Assembly (NCBI GenBank): GCA_029860345.1
Contig: JAOUBJ010000001.1
Coordinates: 507,089 to 571,088 of the forward strand
DNA from: Candidatus Zixiibacteriota bacterium
GTDB lineage: Bacteria > Zixibacteria > MSB-5A5 > GN15 > FEB-12
Reading direction: 5' to 3'
Length of the DNA stretch: 64,000 nt
A program made the position numbers and the translations under genes. Position 1 is the first letter of the stretch. Every line of letters begins with the position of its first letter. The notes under the pieces are model-generated. The model did no database searches. It saw nothing but the letters and a program-made list of their open reading frames with translations, and was not told the DNA's origin. Shown piece after piece: positions 48,435-55,536 of this stretch.

Positions 48435-49547
48435 TCAACGCAGCCAGGCACAATGAACTCGTACATTGGCTTCACCGGTAAACTCGAAAACGGCCCGGCC
48501 CGAGTAGTTTTGGGCTCGACCTTGAAAATCCAGGGCCGGGAAAAACTTGATTTTGGGCACTATCCGGCCGAGAACGGAGCGAATCTCCGAGTTTGTCTGC
48601 TCCGAGCCCATAAAACGACATTGCCCCAGAGTGTCAATTTGAACACGGGCCGAAACAGTATCCCGATGAAGCACCGGGTCCGCCCCCAGCGGATAGATAT
48701 AGGAAGGCAGGCGTTGCGGAAGAGGCAGAGACATAAGACCGGACTGGTCGGCAAAGGACCGTAGTCTGAGAAACTCAAGAGGGTTCGATGTACTGTCCGG
48801 ATTCGGAGGCCAAACCGGGGTTGGATAAGCCTCCGGACCAAAGAAGGAAACCAACAGATACAGGCTGGACGGGATCGACCGACCTTTTACACTGGCCGGA
48901 GCGAACTCGCTCCACAATATAGCCGTCAGCACCTGTTCATCGAATACGGGATAAGTACTTCTCACTATGCGTCTTTCAAGGACGGCGCCCGTTGCGTCCA
49001 GATCGATTGCGAACAGAACATAACGATACGATCCTGCCGTGGTGTCCACGTTGGGCGTAGCGTAATATGATCCGAACCGTGTCACCCTGGGCTGTGTGAT
49101 GTCGTTTTGTTCAAGACAGTGATCATACAATCGTCGGTTGTTAAGATGGCCGAGCGAATCCACAGGAAAAGTGAATATCGGCCAACGATCCCCCGGCCAG
49201 AGAAGCACCTCCACGGGTAGCGTGGACGACACCTCTTGGTCATTCAACTTTGCCGGTGCGAACTTAATCTGCTTCAGGTATGGATCGATGTACTTGGCCA
49301 GGCGGGCATGAGCGGTTGGGGCGGTCAGGACATTCGACACCACGCCGTCGGCATCGATCTGAAGGTCTATGGCCACGATGGTTTCTCTTTGCAGCATGGG
49401 AGCGTTACCATCGCCGACGAATGTCGGCATTGATTGCGGGTAGGCTGCGGCAAAATCGTACAGGCTGATCCGTTCACTTTGGCCGGCCGCCGAAGCGGCG
49501 ATTGACAGAATCGTAATAACTATGGTAGACAGGTATCTTGTGTACAT
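48435..49547 (-). CDS. Secreted protein with TonB_C-like repeats
   Basis: 370 residues, ATG with AAGGAGA upstream. Signal peptide at 1-22. It seems to hold three modules resembling TonB C-terminal domains: about 45-120 (TIVAIDLQIDADGVVSNVLT .. IKFAPAKLNDQEVSSTLPV), about 160-235 (YVLFAIDLDATGAVLERRIV .. FAPASVKGRSIPSSLYLLV) and about 280-360 (VSARVQIDTLGQCRFMGS .. IKFFPALDFQGRAQNYSGRA). No membrane helix other than the signal, so it is not a classical transducer. By inference a periplasmic partner of the TonB/ExbBD cluster next door. Confidence 0.7.
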   Translation of the reverse strand: MYTRYLSTIVITILSIAASAAGQSERISLYDFAAAYPQSMPTFVGDGNAPMLQRETIVAIDLQIDADGVVSNVLTAPTAHARLAKYIDPYLKQIKFAPAKLNDQEVSSTLPVEVLLWPGDRWPIFTFPVDSLGHLNNRRLYDHCLEQNDITQPRVTRFGSYYATPNVDTTAGSYRYVLFAIDLDATGAVLERRIVRSTYPVFDEQVLTAILWSEFAPASVKGRSIPSSLYLLVSFFGPEAYPTPVWPPNPDSTSNPLEFLRLRSFADQSGLMSLPLPQRLPSYIYPLGADPVLHRDTVSARVQIDTLGQCRFMGSEQTNSEIRSVLGRIVPKIKFFPALDFQGRAQNYSGRAVFEFTGEANVRVHCAWLR

Positions 49548-49624
49548 GTGATCTCCTTTGTCGTTATACGTTGGTGGTCACGACAGGTACCCCACCCAAC
49601 GGGTGGGTTTATTGGTTCGCCGGT

Positions 49625-49757
49625 GGTGTTGGGCGACCCCGCCCGACACAGGTAAACCTGATTCTCGCGCTTCGCGCGCTTGCACTCCGGTTTCCGTGGT
49701 AGCCAGGTCAATCTCATCCTCAATTTCATGGCCGTCAGGCGAGTCGCCTGGCAGCAC
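49625..49757 (+). repeat. Dispersed repeat family A, copy 4
   Basis: Starts GGTGTTGGGCGACC..GCCCGACAC and ends GGCCGTCAGGCGAGTCGCC..GCAGCAC. The end sequences match the other copies, but the middle is longer (about 80 bases) and unrelated, and includes the palindrome GCGCTTCGCGCGC. Confidence 0.7.
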
Positions 49758-49917
49758 ATAAAACGCCGGTGGTCAAGATGCGACCGCACAGCCTTGCGAT
49801 TCGATCCAAGATATGGCCCAAAGCAGGTAAAGGGAATAGTAAAAACTGGCGTATGTGTCAGAGGTCAAGGTTGGGTTCGACAACGCCCTAAGGACGAAAA
49901 ACCGATTTATCGATATC

Positions 49918-49938
49918 ACCCCGAGCGGAGTCGAGGGG
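49918..49938 (+). repeat. CCGAGCGGAGTCGAGG-type dispersed repeat
   Basis: ACCCCGAGCGGAGTCGAGGGG, an imperfect palindrome, the same as at 17140. Confidence 0.65.
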
Positions 49939-50068
49939 TGAGCAGAGTTGAAGTCTGTATGTCCCGACGGGGGCAGACCGGTAGGTCTGCCCCGTGGTTG
50001 GGGTCCGGAAACGTTAGAATCAGAATCTGCTAAGGCGACGAGCGATGTCAGACCTCGCCACCTATATC

Positions 50069-50365
50069 TCAGGGAGGCTCATACCCGGGCGCATCCCATT
50101 TGCGGCCCTCGTGCTTATTCGCCTCCGAGTCATCGAATTTCTCACCTTTGTTTTTCCAGGCGTCCACCGCAAGACGCGATGCGTCATCGAGACCTTCCGG
50201 CATCTCCGTGCCGGCCATGGTCAGGCTATCCACCGCCAAATCTTCAGGTATCCGCGCTACAAATACACAGCGACCAAACTGCTGAGTGACAGCACCGCCC
50301 ATGGATTCGACTTCGGCCTTGGCGGCGTCGAAGTCTGAAGTGAACAATAACAGGTCACGAGTCAT
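50069..50365 (-). CDS. Stand-alone homologue of the N-terminal domain of the tectonin-metalloprotease
   Basis: 98 residues from ATG 50365 (GGGAG 7 bases upstream). It aligns with residues 1-105 of the large protein encoded just upstream: LLLFTSDFDAAKAEVESMGG with LMVYTKNFKKTKKEVEEKGG, then GRCVFVARIPE with GDSVSIVELPK, AVDAWKN with IAKAWKA, and EGRKWDAPGYEPP with EGAKWDSQDFKSP. The fold (strand-helix-GG-strand-strand) is reminiscent of the I9-type propeptide of subtilases, which is inference. No signal peptide. It could be an inhibitor, chaperone or immunity-like partner of the protease; it starts 44 bases after the protease stop. Confidence 0.65.
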   Translation of the reverse strand: MTRDLLLFTSDFDAAKAEVESMGGAVTQQFGRCVFVARIPEDLAVDSLTMAGTEMPEGLDDASRLAVDAWKNKGEKFDDSEANKHEGRKWDAPGYEPP

Positions 50366-50408
50366 CACAGAACTCCCGGGTGACAGAGGTGTTTTGAGCA
50401 TCGACTTC

Positions 50409-52724
50409 TCATGGTGTGGCCAGTACCTTTCGTCTGTAAATGTTGTCATTCACGTTGACGCCCCACACCTTATCACTGGCACCGGCGGAAACCTGCTTGA
50501 GTCCGCCGGAGACCCGCTGCCACGAATTGCCCGCACGGCGATAGATATAGTCGCTAGAGTTGACACCCCAGACAGTGCCGTCCTTGGCCACCGATACATG
50601 TTTGAGCCCGCCGGAAATCCTCACCCATCTACTACCAACGCGCTGATAAATATAGTCTTTAGAGTTGACACCCCAGACTTGGGTCGAGCTACCAACGGAG
50701 ATCTGTTTCAGGCCGCCGGGAATCCTCTCCCAACTATTACCAACGCGTCGGTAAATGTAGTTTTTGGAATTGACACCCCAGACCGTGCCGTCGGCGGCCA
50801 CCGATACATATTTGAGCCCGCCGGGAATCCTCTCCCATCTATTGCCAACGCGCCGATAAATATAATCTTTAGAGTTGACTCCCCAGATTTGGGTCGAACT
50901 GCCAACCGAGATCTGTTTCAGGCCGCCGGGAATCCTCTCCCAACTATTACCAACGCGCCGATAGATATAGTCTTTGGAGTTGACTCCCCAGGTCGTGCCG
51001 TCGGCAGCCACTGATACATGCTTGAGCCCGCCCGGGATCTGCTCCCAGAAGCTCCAGCCGATTTGACCTCGGCTCCAACCACAGAGCGACAGAACGTTGG
51101 CATCCATGAGACAAGCTGCTTGGTTACTGGTGCAGTTTACGCAGTTCTTATTCGGAATCCCATAATAGCCGCTGTTGCCGCATCCGCACGAACCATACTC
51201 GTCCGCGGCGCCAAAGATATGGCATGTCTCGTGGGCGAAAACGCGGTTGATGGAATCGGGTCCCCAGCCATCGTTATCATAGTCCATTACTGTTCTAACG
51301 CCACCGGCATAAGCAAAATGGTTGAGAGGATACTGCGTGAAGAAAGCCGCATAGGCCCAGTTGGTGCTCAGTTTCTGCTTCAATGCGTTGACATAGTCTA
51401 CCACACCCTGGTAATTCGCCGAGTAACCCAGCTTCTTCATAGCTGCGTTACGCCACGGATCTTCGTATTTGGCATAGGCGCCTGAGATGTTGGGGTCCGG
51501 CCCGGGTACAGCGTCGACTGTGACGAAGTTCAAGTCGTAGTGAAATGAGACGTTAGCGAGGGGATTGACATTGGCCAGGAAGTTCAATCCTTCAATTACC
51601 TCGGCTATGATCTTCTGGTATTGGGCCGAACTGATACTCAATCCGGAAGCGCTCGACCCTGAGTAGATATAATCTCTAGAGTTGACACCCCAGATATTGT
51701 TGACCGTTCCCGCGGAGACCTGCTTGAGTCCGCCGGGTACCCGCTGCCACGAATTGCCCGCACGGCGATAGATATTGTCGTTGGAGTTGACACCCCAGAC
51801 AGTGCCGTCCTTGGCCACCGATACATGTTTGAGCCCGCCGGAAATCCTCACCCATCTACTACCAACGCGCTGATAAATATAGTCTTTAGAGTTGACACCC
51901 CAGACTTGGGTCGAGCTACCAACGGAGATCTGTTTCAGGCCGCCGGGAATCCTCTCCCAACTATTACCAACGCGTCGGTAAATGTAGTTTTTGGAATTGA
52001 CACCCCAGACCGTGCCGTCGGCGGCCACCGATACATATTTGAGCCCGCCGGGAATCCTCTCCCATCTATTGCCAACGCGCCGATAAATATAATCTTTAGA
52101 GTTGACTCCCCAGATTTGGGTCGAACTGCCAACCGAGATCTGTTTCAGGCCGCCGGGAATCCTCTCCCAACTATTACCAACGCGCCGATAGATATAGTCT
52201 TTGGAGTTGACTCCCCAGGTCGTGCCGTCGGCAGCCACTGATACATGCTTGAGCCCGCCCGGGATCCTGTGCCAACTGTCGCCGCCAACGACAACTACGC
52301 CGACCGCAACAGAATCGGTCATATAGAGACTAGTACCGGTGCCGGTGGACATCGATGCCATGGTCGCTGCGCCTCGGCCTTTTAGTTTGAGCCCGCGACC
52401 GGCATCATGGTGGCGGGGAGACTTGAAATCTTGCGAATCCCATTTGGCGCCCTCCCTTGTCGACCTTGTCATCAGGCTTTCAAGTTCGGTGCCTTTGCAG
52501 GCATGGGTGGCTTTCCAGGCCTTGGCAATGAGCTTCTGCTGCTCATCGAGAAATTGTTGCACCTTTGTGTCGTGGGTGCTGAGGTCACGGAGTTTATGGG
52601 GCTTGGGAAGTTCCACGATTGATACGCTGTCTCCCAATCGGTGCAGGATGCGACCGCCTTTTTCCTCGACTTCCTTCTTGGTCTTCTTGAAGTTCTTGGT
52701 GTACACCATTAAAGGTTTGCTCAT
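50409..52724 (-). CDS. Two-propeller tectonin metalloprotease with I9-like N-terminal domain
   Basis: 771 residues. ATG preceded by GGAGG. Residues 1-105 form the domain shared with the 98-residue protein. About 150-355 are six tectonin repeats of about 35 residues (pattern IPGGLKHVSVAADGTTWGVN..IYRRVGN). About 365-555 is a metallopeptidase domain with HETCHIFGAADEY (H498, E499, H502, D508), an HExxHxxGxxD zinc site, a Cys-rich stretch (four to six Cys at 513-538) and Met-turn candidate CLMDANV (M540). About 559-771 are six more tectonin repeats. There is no signal peptide, so export (if any) needs another route. Substrate unknown; the propellers suggest binding of sugar or LPS, as in tachylectin and tectonin relatives (inference). 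Confidence 0.85.
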   Translation of the reverse strand: MSKPLMVYTKNFKKTKKEVEEKGGRILHRLGDSVSIVELPKPHKLRDLSTHDTKVQQFLDEQQKLIAKAWKATHACKGTELESLMTRSTREGAKWDSQDFKSPRHHDAGRGLKLKGRGAATMASMSTGTGTSLYMTDSVAVGVVVVGGDSWHRIPGGLKHVSVAADGTTWGVNSKDYIYRRVGNSWERIPGGLKQISVGSSTQIWGVNSKDYIYRRVGNRWERIPGGLKYVSVAADGTVWGVNSKNYIYRRVGNSWERIPGGLKQISVGSSTQVWGVNSKDYIYQRVGSRWVRISGGLKHVSVAKDGTVWGVNSNDNIYRRAGNSWQRVPGGLKQVSAGTVNNIWGVNSRDYIYSGSSASGLSISSAQYQKIIAEVIEGLNFLANVNPLANVSFHYDLNFVTVDAVPGPDPNISGAYAKYEDPWRNAAMKKLGYSANYQGVVDYVNALKQKLSTNWAYAAFFTQYPLNHFAYAGGVRTVMDYDNDGWGPDSINRVFAHETCHIFGAADEYGSCGCGNSGYYGIPNKNCVNCTSNQAACLMDANVLSLCGWSRGQIGWSFWEQIPGGLKHVSVAADGTTWGVNSKDYIYRRVGNSWERIPGGLKQISVGSSTQIWGVNSKDYIYRRVGNRWERIPGGLKYVSVAADGTVWGVNSKNYIYRRVGNSWERIPGGLKQISVGSSTQVWGVNSKDYIYQRVGSRWVRISGGLKHVSVAKDGTVWGVNSSDYIYRRAGNSWQRVSGGLKQVSAGASDKVWGVNVNDNIYRRKVLATP
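50485..51039 (-). repeat. Long direct repeat, copy in the C-terminal propeller
   Basis: About 555 bases that encode the C-terminal propeller. Matches 51712-52266 at a constant offset of 1227 bases with only a handful of mismatches, and the boundary at 51039/52266 is sharp (GGGATCT against GGGATCC). Confidence 0.85.
51712..52266 (-). repeat. Long direct repeat, copy in the N-terminal propeller
   Basis: Partner of 50485-51039. The few differences concentrate near the 5' plus-strand edge (for example TATAGTCGCT against TATTGTCGTT). Confidence 0.85.
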
Positions 52725-52867
52725 GACAAGCCTCCATTCCTGTTTAAGGGTCGGTTGTGATCATACTGATTCGCGATACGCGTCCTTTCAGCCACAAGGT
52801 AGCTGAGTTGATCTGCATCCGACGTCGGGTGTGTACAGCAAGTGGTGTGCGGTTTACGTCTGAGCTT

Positions 52868-52900
52868 TGACGTTCCACGTCATCCGCCTCCCAAAGGCGG
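52868..52900 (-). promoter_or_regulatory. Inverted repeats in the leader of the tectonin-protease gene
   Basis: TGACGT-TCC-ACGTCA (52868-52882), a perfect 6-bp inverted repeat, lies next to CCGCCT-CCCAA-AGGCGG (52884-52900). They lie downstream of the promoter, so they may fold in the mRNA or be an operator. Function is inference. Confidence 0.45.
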
Positions 52901-52982
52901 AGAAGTCGGTAAGGCAGTCGGCCATATTTGCCGAACCCATTCGATGGTTTCGCAAACAAGGAGTAGTCCTTTTAGTAATTTG

Positions 52983-53011
52983 AGTATACCGAAACGCTCC
53001 CCAGTTGTCAA
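52983..53011 (-). promoter_or_regulatory. Promoter for the tectonin-protease module
   Basis: Minus strand: TTGACA (53011-53006), exactly 17 bases, TATACT (52988-52983). It is the closest match to a housekeeping promoter in the window. It gives a leader of about 250 bases before the ATG at 52724. Confidence 0.65.
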
Positions 53012-53361
53012 GTGGTAAAGAAAAAATGGGTCCACTTTCCAACCCACTACTTTCGGCAGGTCTCGTGTGCGCTCTGCGTCCTCGTGCGCCACGCGGATGT
53101 CATGCTGAGCGCAGTCAAAGCACAGCAGCAGACGAGGACGTCTGCCGCGCACAAGTCGCAGGGTCACAATCCCGACTGCGTCGAGATCAGGACCCTGCGA
53201 AACGCTATTTATGACACATCCTCCTTAGTTTGGGACGGAAATAGGGCAGTTCCCATAGGTCGGTCACCCTTGGTGGTCCCGACTCTGGGTGGCCGTTTCA
53301 AACCTCGTTTGGGACTGGAAAGGGGCGGAGGAGGATGTCTGCCGCCCATCGATGCACCTTG

Positions 53362-55536
53362 CTAAATCCCCTGCAACTGCGCCCGTAATTCGGCTACCGA
53401 GGAAACCGGGAGTTTGCAGACAGAATTACGGCAAACATAAGCCTTGACCTCGCCGTTTTCAGAACGGCGCCCCTCAAAAAGTGGCGTGGGACCGGACCCG
53501 GTGGAATTCGTGCCGATGGCAATGATGCGATTCGGCAGGTAGCTTGAATACAGTTCCTCGAGCATCGCATTACGAACCTCGCCTTCACCAACCAGCACGA
53601 TTTCAATCTTGTCGGAGAGATAATAGTCCAGTGCGATCATGGCCGAAGACATACTGCCGGGACTGGCTTTCATCCTGCCGGACAGAGCATCAAGCGCCTT
53701 TTGTCCGGCATCGAAAAACGAATGTTCGTCGGTCAGGCGGTTGAGCCTGAGCAGATTGGAGGCCATAATAGATGCAGGTGCGGGGACCGACTCATCATGC
53801 TCACTTCGAGGACGGACGATCAGATCGTCGGCATTGGCCGGCCGGAGGTAAAAGACGCCTGAGTCATCCATAAACAACTCAACGGCGTTGGTGGTTAGTT
53901 CCTTAGCGAACTCAAGCCACCGTCCATTGCCCGAGGGGTCGGATTCGTACAGATTCAGCAGGCCCTGAGTGTAGTATGCGTAATCTTCCAAAAACTCTCC
54001 ATCCGAGCGACGTCCCTCACGAAACGAATGTGTCAGCTTCCCACTCCGATAGAGTTGCTCCTGCACGAAATCTGCGTTTTTCAGGGCTGCTTCAAGGTAT
54101 CTCTTGTCACCGGTGACTTGATACCCTTTGCACAGCGCCGTCAAGCCCAGTCCGTTCCACGAAGTCAGGATTTTATCATCGGTCAGCGGGCGTACTCTCT
54201 TGCTGCGCGCTTTGAACAGTTTAGCCCGACAGTCGCTAAGGAAACTGTCAAAGTCTTCGCGATCCGATCCTTCTCTTACCTTGCGGGAGTTTGGATCTAT
54301 GTTCAAAATGTTATGACCTTCGAAATTGCCGCCAACGGTAACATTGTAGAAGCGATTGAACAACGCCGCGTCCTCTTTACCGAGCACGTTTACGATTTCT
54401 CTTTCGCTCCAGACATAGAACTTCCCTTCCTCCCCCTCGCTGTCGGCATCGAGGGTGGAGTAGATACCGCCGTTGTCATCGACCATCTCCCTGAGCAGCC
54501 AGTCCAAACTGCGCCGAACGATATCGAGATACCTCTCTTCGCCGGTGATTTGATAGGCGTCGACATAAAGCGGCACCAGCAGGCCGTTGTCATACAGCAT
54601 TTTCTCAAAGTGCGGTACCAGCCAGGCTCGATCCGTGCTGTAGCGCGCAAAGCCGCCGCCCAGATGGTCGAAAATACCGCCGTTGGCCATTCCGTCCAGA
54701 GCCTTTTGAGCATCTGTCAGATAGACCGAATCGCCCGAGTGCTGAAAGTGACGCAGGAAAAGTGATAGTTCCATCGCGTGTGGAAACTTCGGGCGATCAC
54801 CAAAGCCACCGTACATGTCATCGAAGTTGCCACGAAGATTCTGCACCGCCGACTTAAGCATTTCACGGCTTAAATTGCTCTTGGTCAGGCGGGTCTCAAA
54901 ACGTTGCGAGACCTGAACAAACACCTGGCTTGCCTGGTCGGCAATCCCCTTGGGGTTATCGCGGTAGGCGGTTGCTATCTGAGTGAGGAGGTCCATAAAA
55001 GACGGCCGCCCATACCTGGCCTCAGAGGGAAAGTAAGTACCGGCGTAGAATGGTTTCAACTCGGGTGTCAGCCATACCGACATCGGCCATCCACCGCTCC
55101 CGCTGATCGCTGTGGTGAAAGCCATGTAGATACGATCAAGGTCCGGCCGCTGTTCCCGATCCACCTTGATACTGACAAAGTGTTCGTTGAGAAGGGCCGC
55201 GACCGTCTCATCCTCGAACGACTCTCGTTCCATTACATGACACCAGTGACAGGCGGCATAGCCGATGGACAGAAAGATCGGTTTGTTTTCTTCACGCGCC
55301 CGCTTCAGCGCCTCGTCGCCCCATGGATACCAGTTCACCGGATTGTGAGCGTGCGACAAGAGGTATGGAGAGTTTTCGTCGATCAAGTAGTTGGTATGTT
55401 TGTGTTCGGTTTGTTCGGCCTGTTCCATTTTGGCATCCTCCTGCGAGCGGCACGCGGCAGTACCTGTGATCATAACCCCGAGAAGCAAAGCACCAACCGT
55501 GCGAGCCGGCAGGGAGCAGATCTTGTTCATACCCAT
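53362..55536 (-). CDS. DUF255 thioredoxin-fold protein (YyaL/SPATA20 family), lipoprotein-like
   Basis: About 724 residues from ATG 55536, chosen because a signal peptide with a lipobox-like end ([12 protein letters not shown]) starts there and because the frame upstream runs back into the terminator hairpin at 55631-55660. Ribosome site weak; ATG 55530 or 55593 are alternatives. Residues about 45-190 are the N-terminal thioredoxin domain with [10 protein letters not shown] and the CxxC motif AACHWCHVM. The rest is an alpha/alpha-barrel of the six-hairpin glycosidase type ([36 protein letters not shown]). The family is widespread and its reaction is unknown. Here it would sit in the periplasm on a lipid anchor, which is not the usual cytoplasmic form. 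Confidence 0.85.

What the first reader, a model, noticed from the sequence alone, without database searches (positions are those of the whole stretch)
50069..52724. Two-gene module: propeller-protease-propeller protein plus a free copy of its own N-terminal domain
The 771-residue protein places an HExxHxxGxxD metalloprotease between two six-repeat tectonin propellers and starts with a domain that is repeated as a separate 98-residue gene 44 bases downstream. A protease whose leader domain also exists alone is the design of a zymogen with a trans-acting inhibitor, or of a toxin with a matching protective protein. Neither protein has a signal peptide. I know of no described system with this architecture, although single tectonin propellers and HExxH proteases are each well known.
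Basis: partly seen in the sequence, partly recalled or inferred. Interest (0 to 1): 0.8.

Follow-up and report, generated by a model that had tools for sequence, protein, structure and literature searches.

The report
Protease with a spare safety cap
This two-gene unit encodes a zinc protease that carries a built-in cap domain, plus a second gene that makes the cap on its own; the same pair turns up side by side in distantly related bacteria, which suggests the spare cap keeps the protease in check inside the cell that makes it.

Summary
The 771-aa protein starts with a domain repeated in the 98-aa gene 43 nt downstream (30% identity, E 1.7e-9), and neither has a signal peptide. Two corrections and one extension follow. 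(1) The first tectonin propeller is inserted inside the protease domain, between its first strand (residues 133-149) and first helix (about 363). (2) The enzyme belongs to an uncurated metzincin family (HExxHxxGxxD, Met-turn). Its relatives in the window's own phylum are secreted, with a signal peptide and a homologous N-terminal prodomain. The window protein instead falls in a separate clade without signal peptides (Frankia, Streptomyces, Alphaproteobacteria, Magnetococcales), whose C-terminal repeats vary. (3) The free copy is conserved: 29 of 44 loci of that clade carry it next to the protease, several with overlapping or nearly touching genes; none was found away from the protease in 31 searched genomes. 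Its predicted fold resembles subtilisin propeptides. Best reading: a zymogen plus a trans-acting propeptide-like inhibitor, possibly also a chaperone. The design is known for cysteine and serine proteases (SpeB-Spi, ASP-ORF2); a metzincin version was not found in the literature searched. Inhibition itself is untested.

The parts
52983..53011 (-). promoter-like site TTGACA-17-TATACT upstream of the 771-aa gene
   Evidence: consensus scan, 11 of 12 matches, the only site found in 49500-53400; no evidence of function by itself
50409..52724 (-). 771-aa metzincin zymogen-like protease gene with two tectonin propellers
52413..52724 (-). N-terminal prodomain-like domain (residues 1-104)
   Evidence: 30% identical to the 98-aa protein; profile match to N-domains of secreted relatives, hhalign E 2.9e-6, probability 88%
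52278..52328 (-). first strand of the catalytic domain, LYMTDSVAVGVVVVGGD (residues 133-149)
   Evidence: profile scan 22.4 bits, next-best 1.7, 0 of 2000 shuffles as high
51663..52277 (-). tectonin propeller 1 (residues 150-354), inserted inside the catalytic domain
   Evidence: six repeats; Tectonin 2 of PDB 5fsb E 1.2e-70
51051..51650 (-). rest of the metzincin catalytic domain (residues 359-558)
   Evidence: up to 51% identity to Frankia proteins; alignment A5
51201..51233 (-). zinc-binding motif HETCHIFGAAD (residues 498-508)
   Evidence: H, E, H and D invariant in alignments A2, A5, A9
51105..51113 (-). Met-turn C-L-M (residues 538-540)
   Evidence: Cys and Met invariant in the family
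50430..51050 (-). tectonin propeller 2 (residues 559-765), 98.7% identical in DNA to propeller 1 over 558 nt
50069..50365 (-). 98-aa free copy of the prodomain (proposed trans-acting propeptide-like inhibitor)
   Evidence: HMM of fused prodomains from other genomes, window left out, finds it at E 9.3e-8; predicted beta-alpha-beta-beta-alpha fold, nearest PDB folds are subtilisin propeptides
50072..50110 (-). conserved C-terminal tail EGRKWDAPGYEPP of the free copy
   Evidence: the G and W of G-x-x-W are invariant in free copies of other genomes

Best explanation
The locus is a two-gene protease control unit. Gene 1 makes a metzincin that is held inactive by its own N-terminal prodomain; the catalytic domain carries one glycan-binding-type propeller as an internal insertion and another as a C-terminal tail. 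Gene 2, translated right after it, makes the prodomain alone. The free prodomain most likely binds the active-site cleft of protease molecules whose own prodomain has been lost or displaced, with its conserved C-terminal tail (G-x-x-W-D-x-P-G-Y-x-x-P) lying in or near the cleft, and so protects the producing cell from premature activity. It may also help the protease fold, as subtilisin-type propeptides do. Shown here: the domain repeat, its recurrence beside the protease in many genomes, homology to the N-domain of secreted relatives, the predicted propeptide-like fold, the split catalytic domain. Inferred: inhibition, binding mode, site of action, glycan targeting by the propellers.
For: Free copy next to the protease in 29 of 44 loci of the same clade, across Actinomycetota, Pseudomonadota and the window's phylum. 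The first hits came from an HMM without any free copy or window sequence (L037 E 1.2e-7, L038 4.7e-7, L043 4.1e-5, window 9.3e-8). In 31 searched genomes no free copy lies away from the protease. Gaps of -13, -4 (ATGA overlap), -4, 1, 10, 27 and 38 nt in same-strand pairs suggest translational coupling. Frankia free genes evolve under constraint (median dN/dS 0.48; protease domain 0.29). Relatives in the window's phylum and elsewhere have signal peptide, homologous N-domain, protease: zymogen order. Predicted fold of the free copy: PDB ranks 1-20 are all subtilisin propeptides or pro-subtilisins; MIC5 (prodomain mimic) and POIA1 are also listed. In a hemopexin-bearing branch the prodomain sits in a separate upstream gene and the protease ORF of L052 starts just before strand 1, so the domain seems able to work in trans.
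Against: No biochemical data. Foldseek E-values are weak (best 0.055) and rest on an 11-sequence alignment (pLDDT 76.7). 15 of 44 clade members have no detectable free copy (one Frankiaceae group, Actinokineospora, two Streptomyces and others), so it is not obligatory, or has diverged. In Frankia and Croceibacterium the two genes are convergent, not an operon. No invariant Cys, and the Asp after Trp is not invariant, so no clear cysteine or aspartate switch residue was found.
Confidence: 0.6

Rival explanations
1. The free copy is a trans-acting folding chaperone, not primarily an inhibitor. It helps fold the protease, whose own prodomain is interrupted from the catalytic core by the inserted propeller, and then leaves or is degraded.
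For: ASP-ORF2 of Aeromonas sobria works this way: the chaperone is encoded just downstream of the protease, contacts the catalytic site with its C-terminus and is needed for maturation (PMC5638518); ORF2 structures are among the weak fold matches (ranks 26 and 35). Split-gene branch L052, L056, L068.
Against: Most partners still carry their own prodomain, including proteins with no insertion (L036-L040), so a second foldase would be redundant. ORF2 itself also inhibits (IC50 84 nM), so the two roles are not exclusive.
Confidence: 0.2
2. Toxin and immunity pair: the protease is released or delivered to kill or damage other cells recognised by its propeller, and the free prodomain is the immunity protein of the producer.
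For: No signal peptide in the clade, patchy distribution (1 of 296 genomes in one family, 3 of 344 in Streptomyces), exchangeable lectin-like C-terminal modules, small neighbouring gene evolving faster than the enzyme.
Against: No secretion, phage-tail or toxin-system genes recognised around six of the loci by reading ORFs; no match in the defence library; 28 of 35 Frankiaceae genomes keep the protease, unlike a polymorphic toxin.
Confidence: 0.1
3. The repeated domain is a dimerisation, localisation or scaffolding module; the free copy pairs with the N-domain of the enzyme and does not touch the active site.
For: Same-fold domains often form homotypic pairs (general knowledge); the conserved tail could be an interaction motif. 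No switch residue is invariant.
Against: Fold matches and gene order point to a propeptide. The tail is the most conserved part and stops where the linker to the protease begins, as in propeptide-like inhibitors.
Confidence: 0.08
4. Decaying or accidental duplicate: the 98-aa ORF is a leftover of an N-domain duplication without function.
For: Low identity of the two copies (30%).
Against: Recurrence beside the protease in several bacterial groups and dN/dS below 1; good ribosome-binding site.
Confidence: 0.02

Closest known systems
SpeB-Spi of Streptococcus pyogenes (C10 cysteine protease and propeptide-analogue inhibitor)
   Same: Protease gene juxtaposed to a small gene for an inhibitor described as a propeptide analogue (PMC2873492)
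   Different: Cysteine protease of another fold and secreted; no homology of Spi to the present domain is known to me; no propellers
ASP-ORF2 of Aeromonas sobria (subtilisin-family protease and external chaperone)
   Same: Downstream gene encodes a protein that binds the catalytic site, inhibits and helps folding (PMC5638518); ORF2 structures are weak fold matches
   Different: Serine protease that lacks its own propeptide; here the enzyme keeps a fused copy
Inhibitor_I9 / subtilisin propeptides, POIA1, MIC5
   Same: Predicted fold: top 20 PDB matches are subtilisin propeptides or pro-subtilisins; POIA1 and MIC5 also found
   Different: No sequence match to the Pfam family; partner is a metzincin, not a subtilisin
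AprA-AprI and Mep72-BamI of Pseudomonas aeruginosa
   Same: Metzincin with an inhibitor encoded next to it; Mep72 also carries carbohydrate-binding modules and needs BamI to be tolerated in E. coli (PMC4334185)
   Different: Inhibitors are not described as copies of the enzyme's own prodomain; both enzymes are exported by known routes
Snapalysin (peptidase M7) and adamalysin-type (M12) metzincins
   Same: HExxHxxGxxD as in snapalysin, Met-turn; PDB profile hits 4hx3 and 1c7k E 0.0022; fold matches to snake-venom and ADAM proteases
   Different: All protease-library matches fall below curated cut-offs

Membership tests
Metzincin metalloproteases (clan MA(M)) | HExxHxxGxx(H/D) zinc motif | tested here: met
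   H498, E499, H502, D508; invariant across A2, A5, A9
Metzincin metalloproteases (clan MA(M)) | Met-turn downstream of the zinc motif | tested here: met
   Cys-x-Met invariant, M540 in the window protein
Metzincin metalloproteases (clan MA(M)) | metzincin fold | tested here: met
   model of relative L036 (pLDDT 83.7, pTM 0.87) matches venom and ADAM metzincins, best E 8.7e-4; TM-scores are modest (0.3-0.6)
Peptidase M7 (snapalysin) | match above the Pfam or NCBIfam cut-off | tested here: not met
   PF02031 18 bits against 25; NF033628 17.9 against 300
Inhibitor_I9 propeptide family | sequence match to the family profile | tested here: not met
   no I9 match for the 98-aa protein or any of 11 members
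Inhibitor_I9 propeptide family | propeptide fold (beta-alpha-beta-beta-alpha-beta) | tested here: inconclusive
   predicted E2-8 H12-21 E25-30 E34-40 H61-71; 20 best PDB hits are subtilisin propeptides but E >= 0.055
Protease / propeptide-like inhibitor pair (SpeB-Spi type) | small protein homologous to the protease's own prodomain | tested here: met
Protease / propeptide-like inhibitor pair (SpeB-Spi type) | neighbouring genes, conserved | tested here: met
   29 of 44 loci of the clade
Protease / propeptide-like inhibitor pair (SpeB-Spi type) | the small protein inhibits the protease | not testable with these tools
   needs purified proteins
Cysteine-switch or aspartate-switch zymogens | invariant Cys or Asp in the prodomain that binds zinc | tested here: not met
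   no invariant Cys in the clade; Asp after Trp replaced in several members
Tectonin lectins | tandem tectonin repeats forming a six-bladed propeller | tested here: met
   Pfam Tectonin E 7e-144, six repeats each, PDB 5fsb E 1e-70
Tectonin lectins | glycan binding | not testable with these tools
   not assayed
Toxin-immunity systems | delivery system or toxicity | not tested
   no secretion genes recognised by reading the ORFs around six loci; toxicity not testable

The most novel reading that the evidence does not exclude
A previously undescribed family of signal-peptide-less metzincins, spread by horizontal transfer, in which a subtilisin-propeptide-like prodomain is used twice: fused as zymogen cap and free as a dedicated intracellular inhibitor. 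The enzyme swaps its targeting module (tectonin, hemopexin, lectin, FG-GAP, BTRD1, ricin-B) and has twice independently accepted a propeller inside the catalytic domain, at two different loops.
Probability: 0.45. Interest if true: 0.75.

Novelty: new variant of a known kind. Interest (0 to 1): 0.62.

Why it matters
It would extend the propeptide-copy inhibitor design, known for cysteine and serine proteases, to zinc metzincins, with a ready test set of natural pairs in several bacterial groups. It would point to a propeptide fold shared between subtilisins and metzincins. It also gives two natural examples of a whole beta-propeller inserted into a catalytic domain. The free proteins are small, genetically paired candidate protease inhibitors that can be tested directly, and the near-universal presence of the enzyme in Frankiaceae offers a defined place to ask what it does.

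Tried and rejected
Direct searches with the 98-aa/N-domain pair alone found no convincing relatives in genome contigs, viral contigs, phages, plasmids or the other genomes of the phylum; relatives appeared only after searching with the protease domain. Pfam, NCBIfam, PHROGs and PADLOC gave no family for the 98-aa protein. The linear reading (propeller, protease, propeller) was rejected by the position of strand beta-1. A family-wide cysteine switch was considered because many secreted relatives and some clade members have a Cys in that region, but it is not conserved. An alignment of the full 771-aa protein for structure prediction failed because of the insertion, so relative L036 was folded instead; no coordinates were available to measure prodomain-zinc distances. 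A search for another conserved small gene beside clade members without a free copy was not informative. Phage or contractile-injection context: no secretion genes recognised by reading the ORFs of six loci.

Full report
Observation. The two ORFs are present as described on the minus strand. The 98-aa protein (50069-50365) and residues 1-103 of the 771-aa protein (50409-52724) share 30% identity over the whole domain, E 1.7e-9 in a search of the whole 4.76-Mb genome, and these are the only two copies there. The gap is 43 nt, both starts have good ribosome-binding sites, and the only consensus promoter found in the region lies upstream of the 771-aa gene. Neither protein has a hydrophobic N-terminus. 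Base composition of the pair is like that of its neighbours.

What the enzyme is. Residues 359-558 contain HETCHIFGAADE and a C-x-M Met-turn. Pfam and NCBIfam give only sub-threshold hits to reprolysins and snapalysin, the PDB profile search gives snapalysin at E 0.0022, and a model of the relative L036 (pLDDT 83.7, pTM 0.87) matches venom and ADAM metzincins. It is therefore a metzincin of a family without a curated profile in these libraries.

The catalytic domain is split. All close relatives begin the catalytic domain with a strand of the form xLxGrVAVGliiVxGP, followed directly by the first helix. A profile of that strand, built without the window, finds one site in the window protein, LYMTDSVAVGVVVVGGD at 133-149, with 22.4 bits; the next site scores 1.7 and no shuffle of 2000 reached the score. 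Tectonin propeller 1 (150-354) thus sits between strand 1 and helix 1. Propeller 2 (559-765) follows the catalytic domain, and the two are 98.7% identical over 558 nt, so the duplication is recent or the copies are being homogenised; an assembly error is not excluded. These are the only tectonins in the genome; the nearest solved structure by sequence is Tectonin 2 (PDB 5fsb), E 1e-70. In Cellulomonas, Cryobacterium, Marinosulfonomonas and a Hyphomicrobiales bacterium a hemopexin unit is inserted at another loop of the same domain, with a second unit at the C-terminus where the gene is complete: the same layout reached separately.

Relatives and tree. Ten other genomes of the window's phylum, and the window's own genome at another place, encode members of a secreted branch: signal peptide where the start is seen, N-domain, protease, and in several a dockerin-like C-terminus. 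The nearest relatives of the window protein are elsewhere: Frankia, Streptomyces, Croceibacterium, Magnetococcales, Methylobacterium, Ruegeria (43-51% identity). In a tree of 77 catalytic domains the window falls in a 27-row clade of signal-peptide-less proteins (support 99), apart from its phylum. This implies horizontal transfer. C-terminal modules in this clade and its hemopexin sister branch are exchanged: FG-GAP, BTRD1, CV39L-type propeller lectin, hemopexin, ricin-B; some alphaproteobacterial and Magnetococcales members have none.

The N-domain is a conserved prodomain. The window pair matches the profile of N-domains of secreted relatives (hhalign E 2.9e-6, probability 88%), free copies from other genomes match it too (E 1.6e-5), and free and fused copies match each other without any window sequence (E 3e-9). 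The fused copies of the clade alone do not match the secreted N-domains (E 0.22), perhaps because their first half is shortened. The position after a signal peptide and before the catalytic domain is that of a zymogen propeptide.

The free copy is conserved. An HMM made only from fused N-domains of other genomes was run on 15,116 ORFs of all loci then held. It found, beside the protease gene, standalone copies in Croceibacterium (E 1.2e-7), Magnetococcales (4.7e-7) and Rhodobacterales (4.1e-5), and the window's 98-aa gene (9.3e-8). Weaker neighbours in Methylobacterium, Ruegeria, Streptomyces and Frankia share the C-terminal motif G-x-x-W-(D/G/E); these were added by position and motif, so their later high scores are not independent. 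Independent confirmations with the extended model: Acetobacteraceae L047 (E 5.7e-10), 17 further Frankia loci, and L164 and L165. In total 29 of 44 loci of the clade have it. In 31 searched genomes no copy was found away from the protease. Gene order varies: downstream on the same strand, with ATGA overlaps in L040 and L043; upstream in L036 and L164; convergent in Frankia and Croceibacterium. Changing order with constant proximity speaks for a functional link. The Frankia free genes show median dN/dS 0.48 at 53% amino-acid identity. In the hemopexin branch L052, L056 and L068 the prodomain lies in a separate upstream ORF, and the L052 protease ORF begins just before strand 1.

Fold of the free copy. 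AlphaFold2 with 11 sequences gives beta-alpha-beta-beta-alpha (pLDDT 76.7). Foldseek against the PDB has no hit below 0.001, but ranks 1-20 of 350,542 chains are all subtilisin propeptides or pro-subtilisins (E 0.055-0.33), and MIC5, POIA1 and the ASP chaperone ORF2 are also listed. The consistency of the list is better evidence than any single score.

Mechanism. The most economical reading is a zymogen whose prodomain is also made in trans, to bind and silence enzyme that has lost or displaced its own prodomain. The free proteins end a few residues after W-D-x-P-G-Y, just where the fused version runs into the linker; in ASP-ORF2 the C-terminal end of the partner contacts the catalytic site (PMC5638518). 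Inhibitor and chaperone roles overlap in this class. Binding, inhibition and the site of action are inferred.

Comparison with what is known. SpeB and Spi (propeptide analogue; PMC2873492) and ASP and ORF2 have the same design for cysteine and serine proteases. AprA-AprI and Mep72-BamI (PMC4334185) are metzincins with neighbouring inhibitors that are not described as copies of the prodomain. In the library searched (open-licence PMC papers only) I found no described metzincin with a free copy of its own prodomain, nor one with a propeller inserted in the catalytic domain; subscription papers were not covered. Hence: a new variant of a known kind.

Noticed in passing
own genome G000:C26:11521-12075 (locus L016): The genome also encodes a member of the secreted branch of the same protease family (signal peptide, N-domain, protease, in a long open frame), so two branches of the family coexist in one genome.
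   Followed up: partly
L049 6282-9107, L051 5727-9056, L052 7074-9140, L056 7122-9155, L068 6419-7786: Cellulomonas, Cryobacterium, Marinosulfonomonas and Hyphomicrobiales relatives carry a hemopexin unit inserted in the protease domain, at another loop than in the window; where the gene is complete a second unit follows at the C-terminus.
   Followed up: partly
L052 6683-7114, L056 6345-7118, L068 5918-6415: The prodomain is encoded by a separate upstream ORF that ends in a Cys-containing tail (PGESPEEQL...C), with the protease ORF following; a natural split of cap and enzyme.
   Followed up: partly
window 51663-52277 and 50430-51050: The two propellers are 98.7% identical over 558 nt although they flank an unrelated domain: recent duplication, gene conversion or assembly error.
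   Followed up: partly
Frankiaceae genomes, loci L103-L130 and L138-L163: 28 of 35 Frankiaceae genomes keep this protease; one subgroup (L154-L160) lacks a detectable free prodomain gene.
   Followed up: partly
L087 6298-7698: A viral-collection contig encodes a protease of the secreted branch that groups with planctomycete sequences.
   Followed up: no
loci L004-L007, L010, L013, L016: Secreted relatives in the window's phylum have a Cys between the N-domain and the first catalytic strand (for example AGGCVIK, LTGCVKY, LYDCVSY), a possible cysteine switch that the window protein lacks at this place.
   Followed up: partly
window 50286-51014 and 51825-52241, plus strand: Long open frames antisense to the propellers; a by-product of the repeats, probably not genes.
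   Followed up: no
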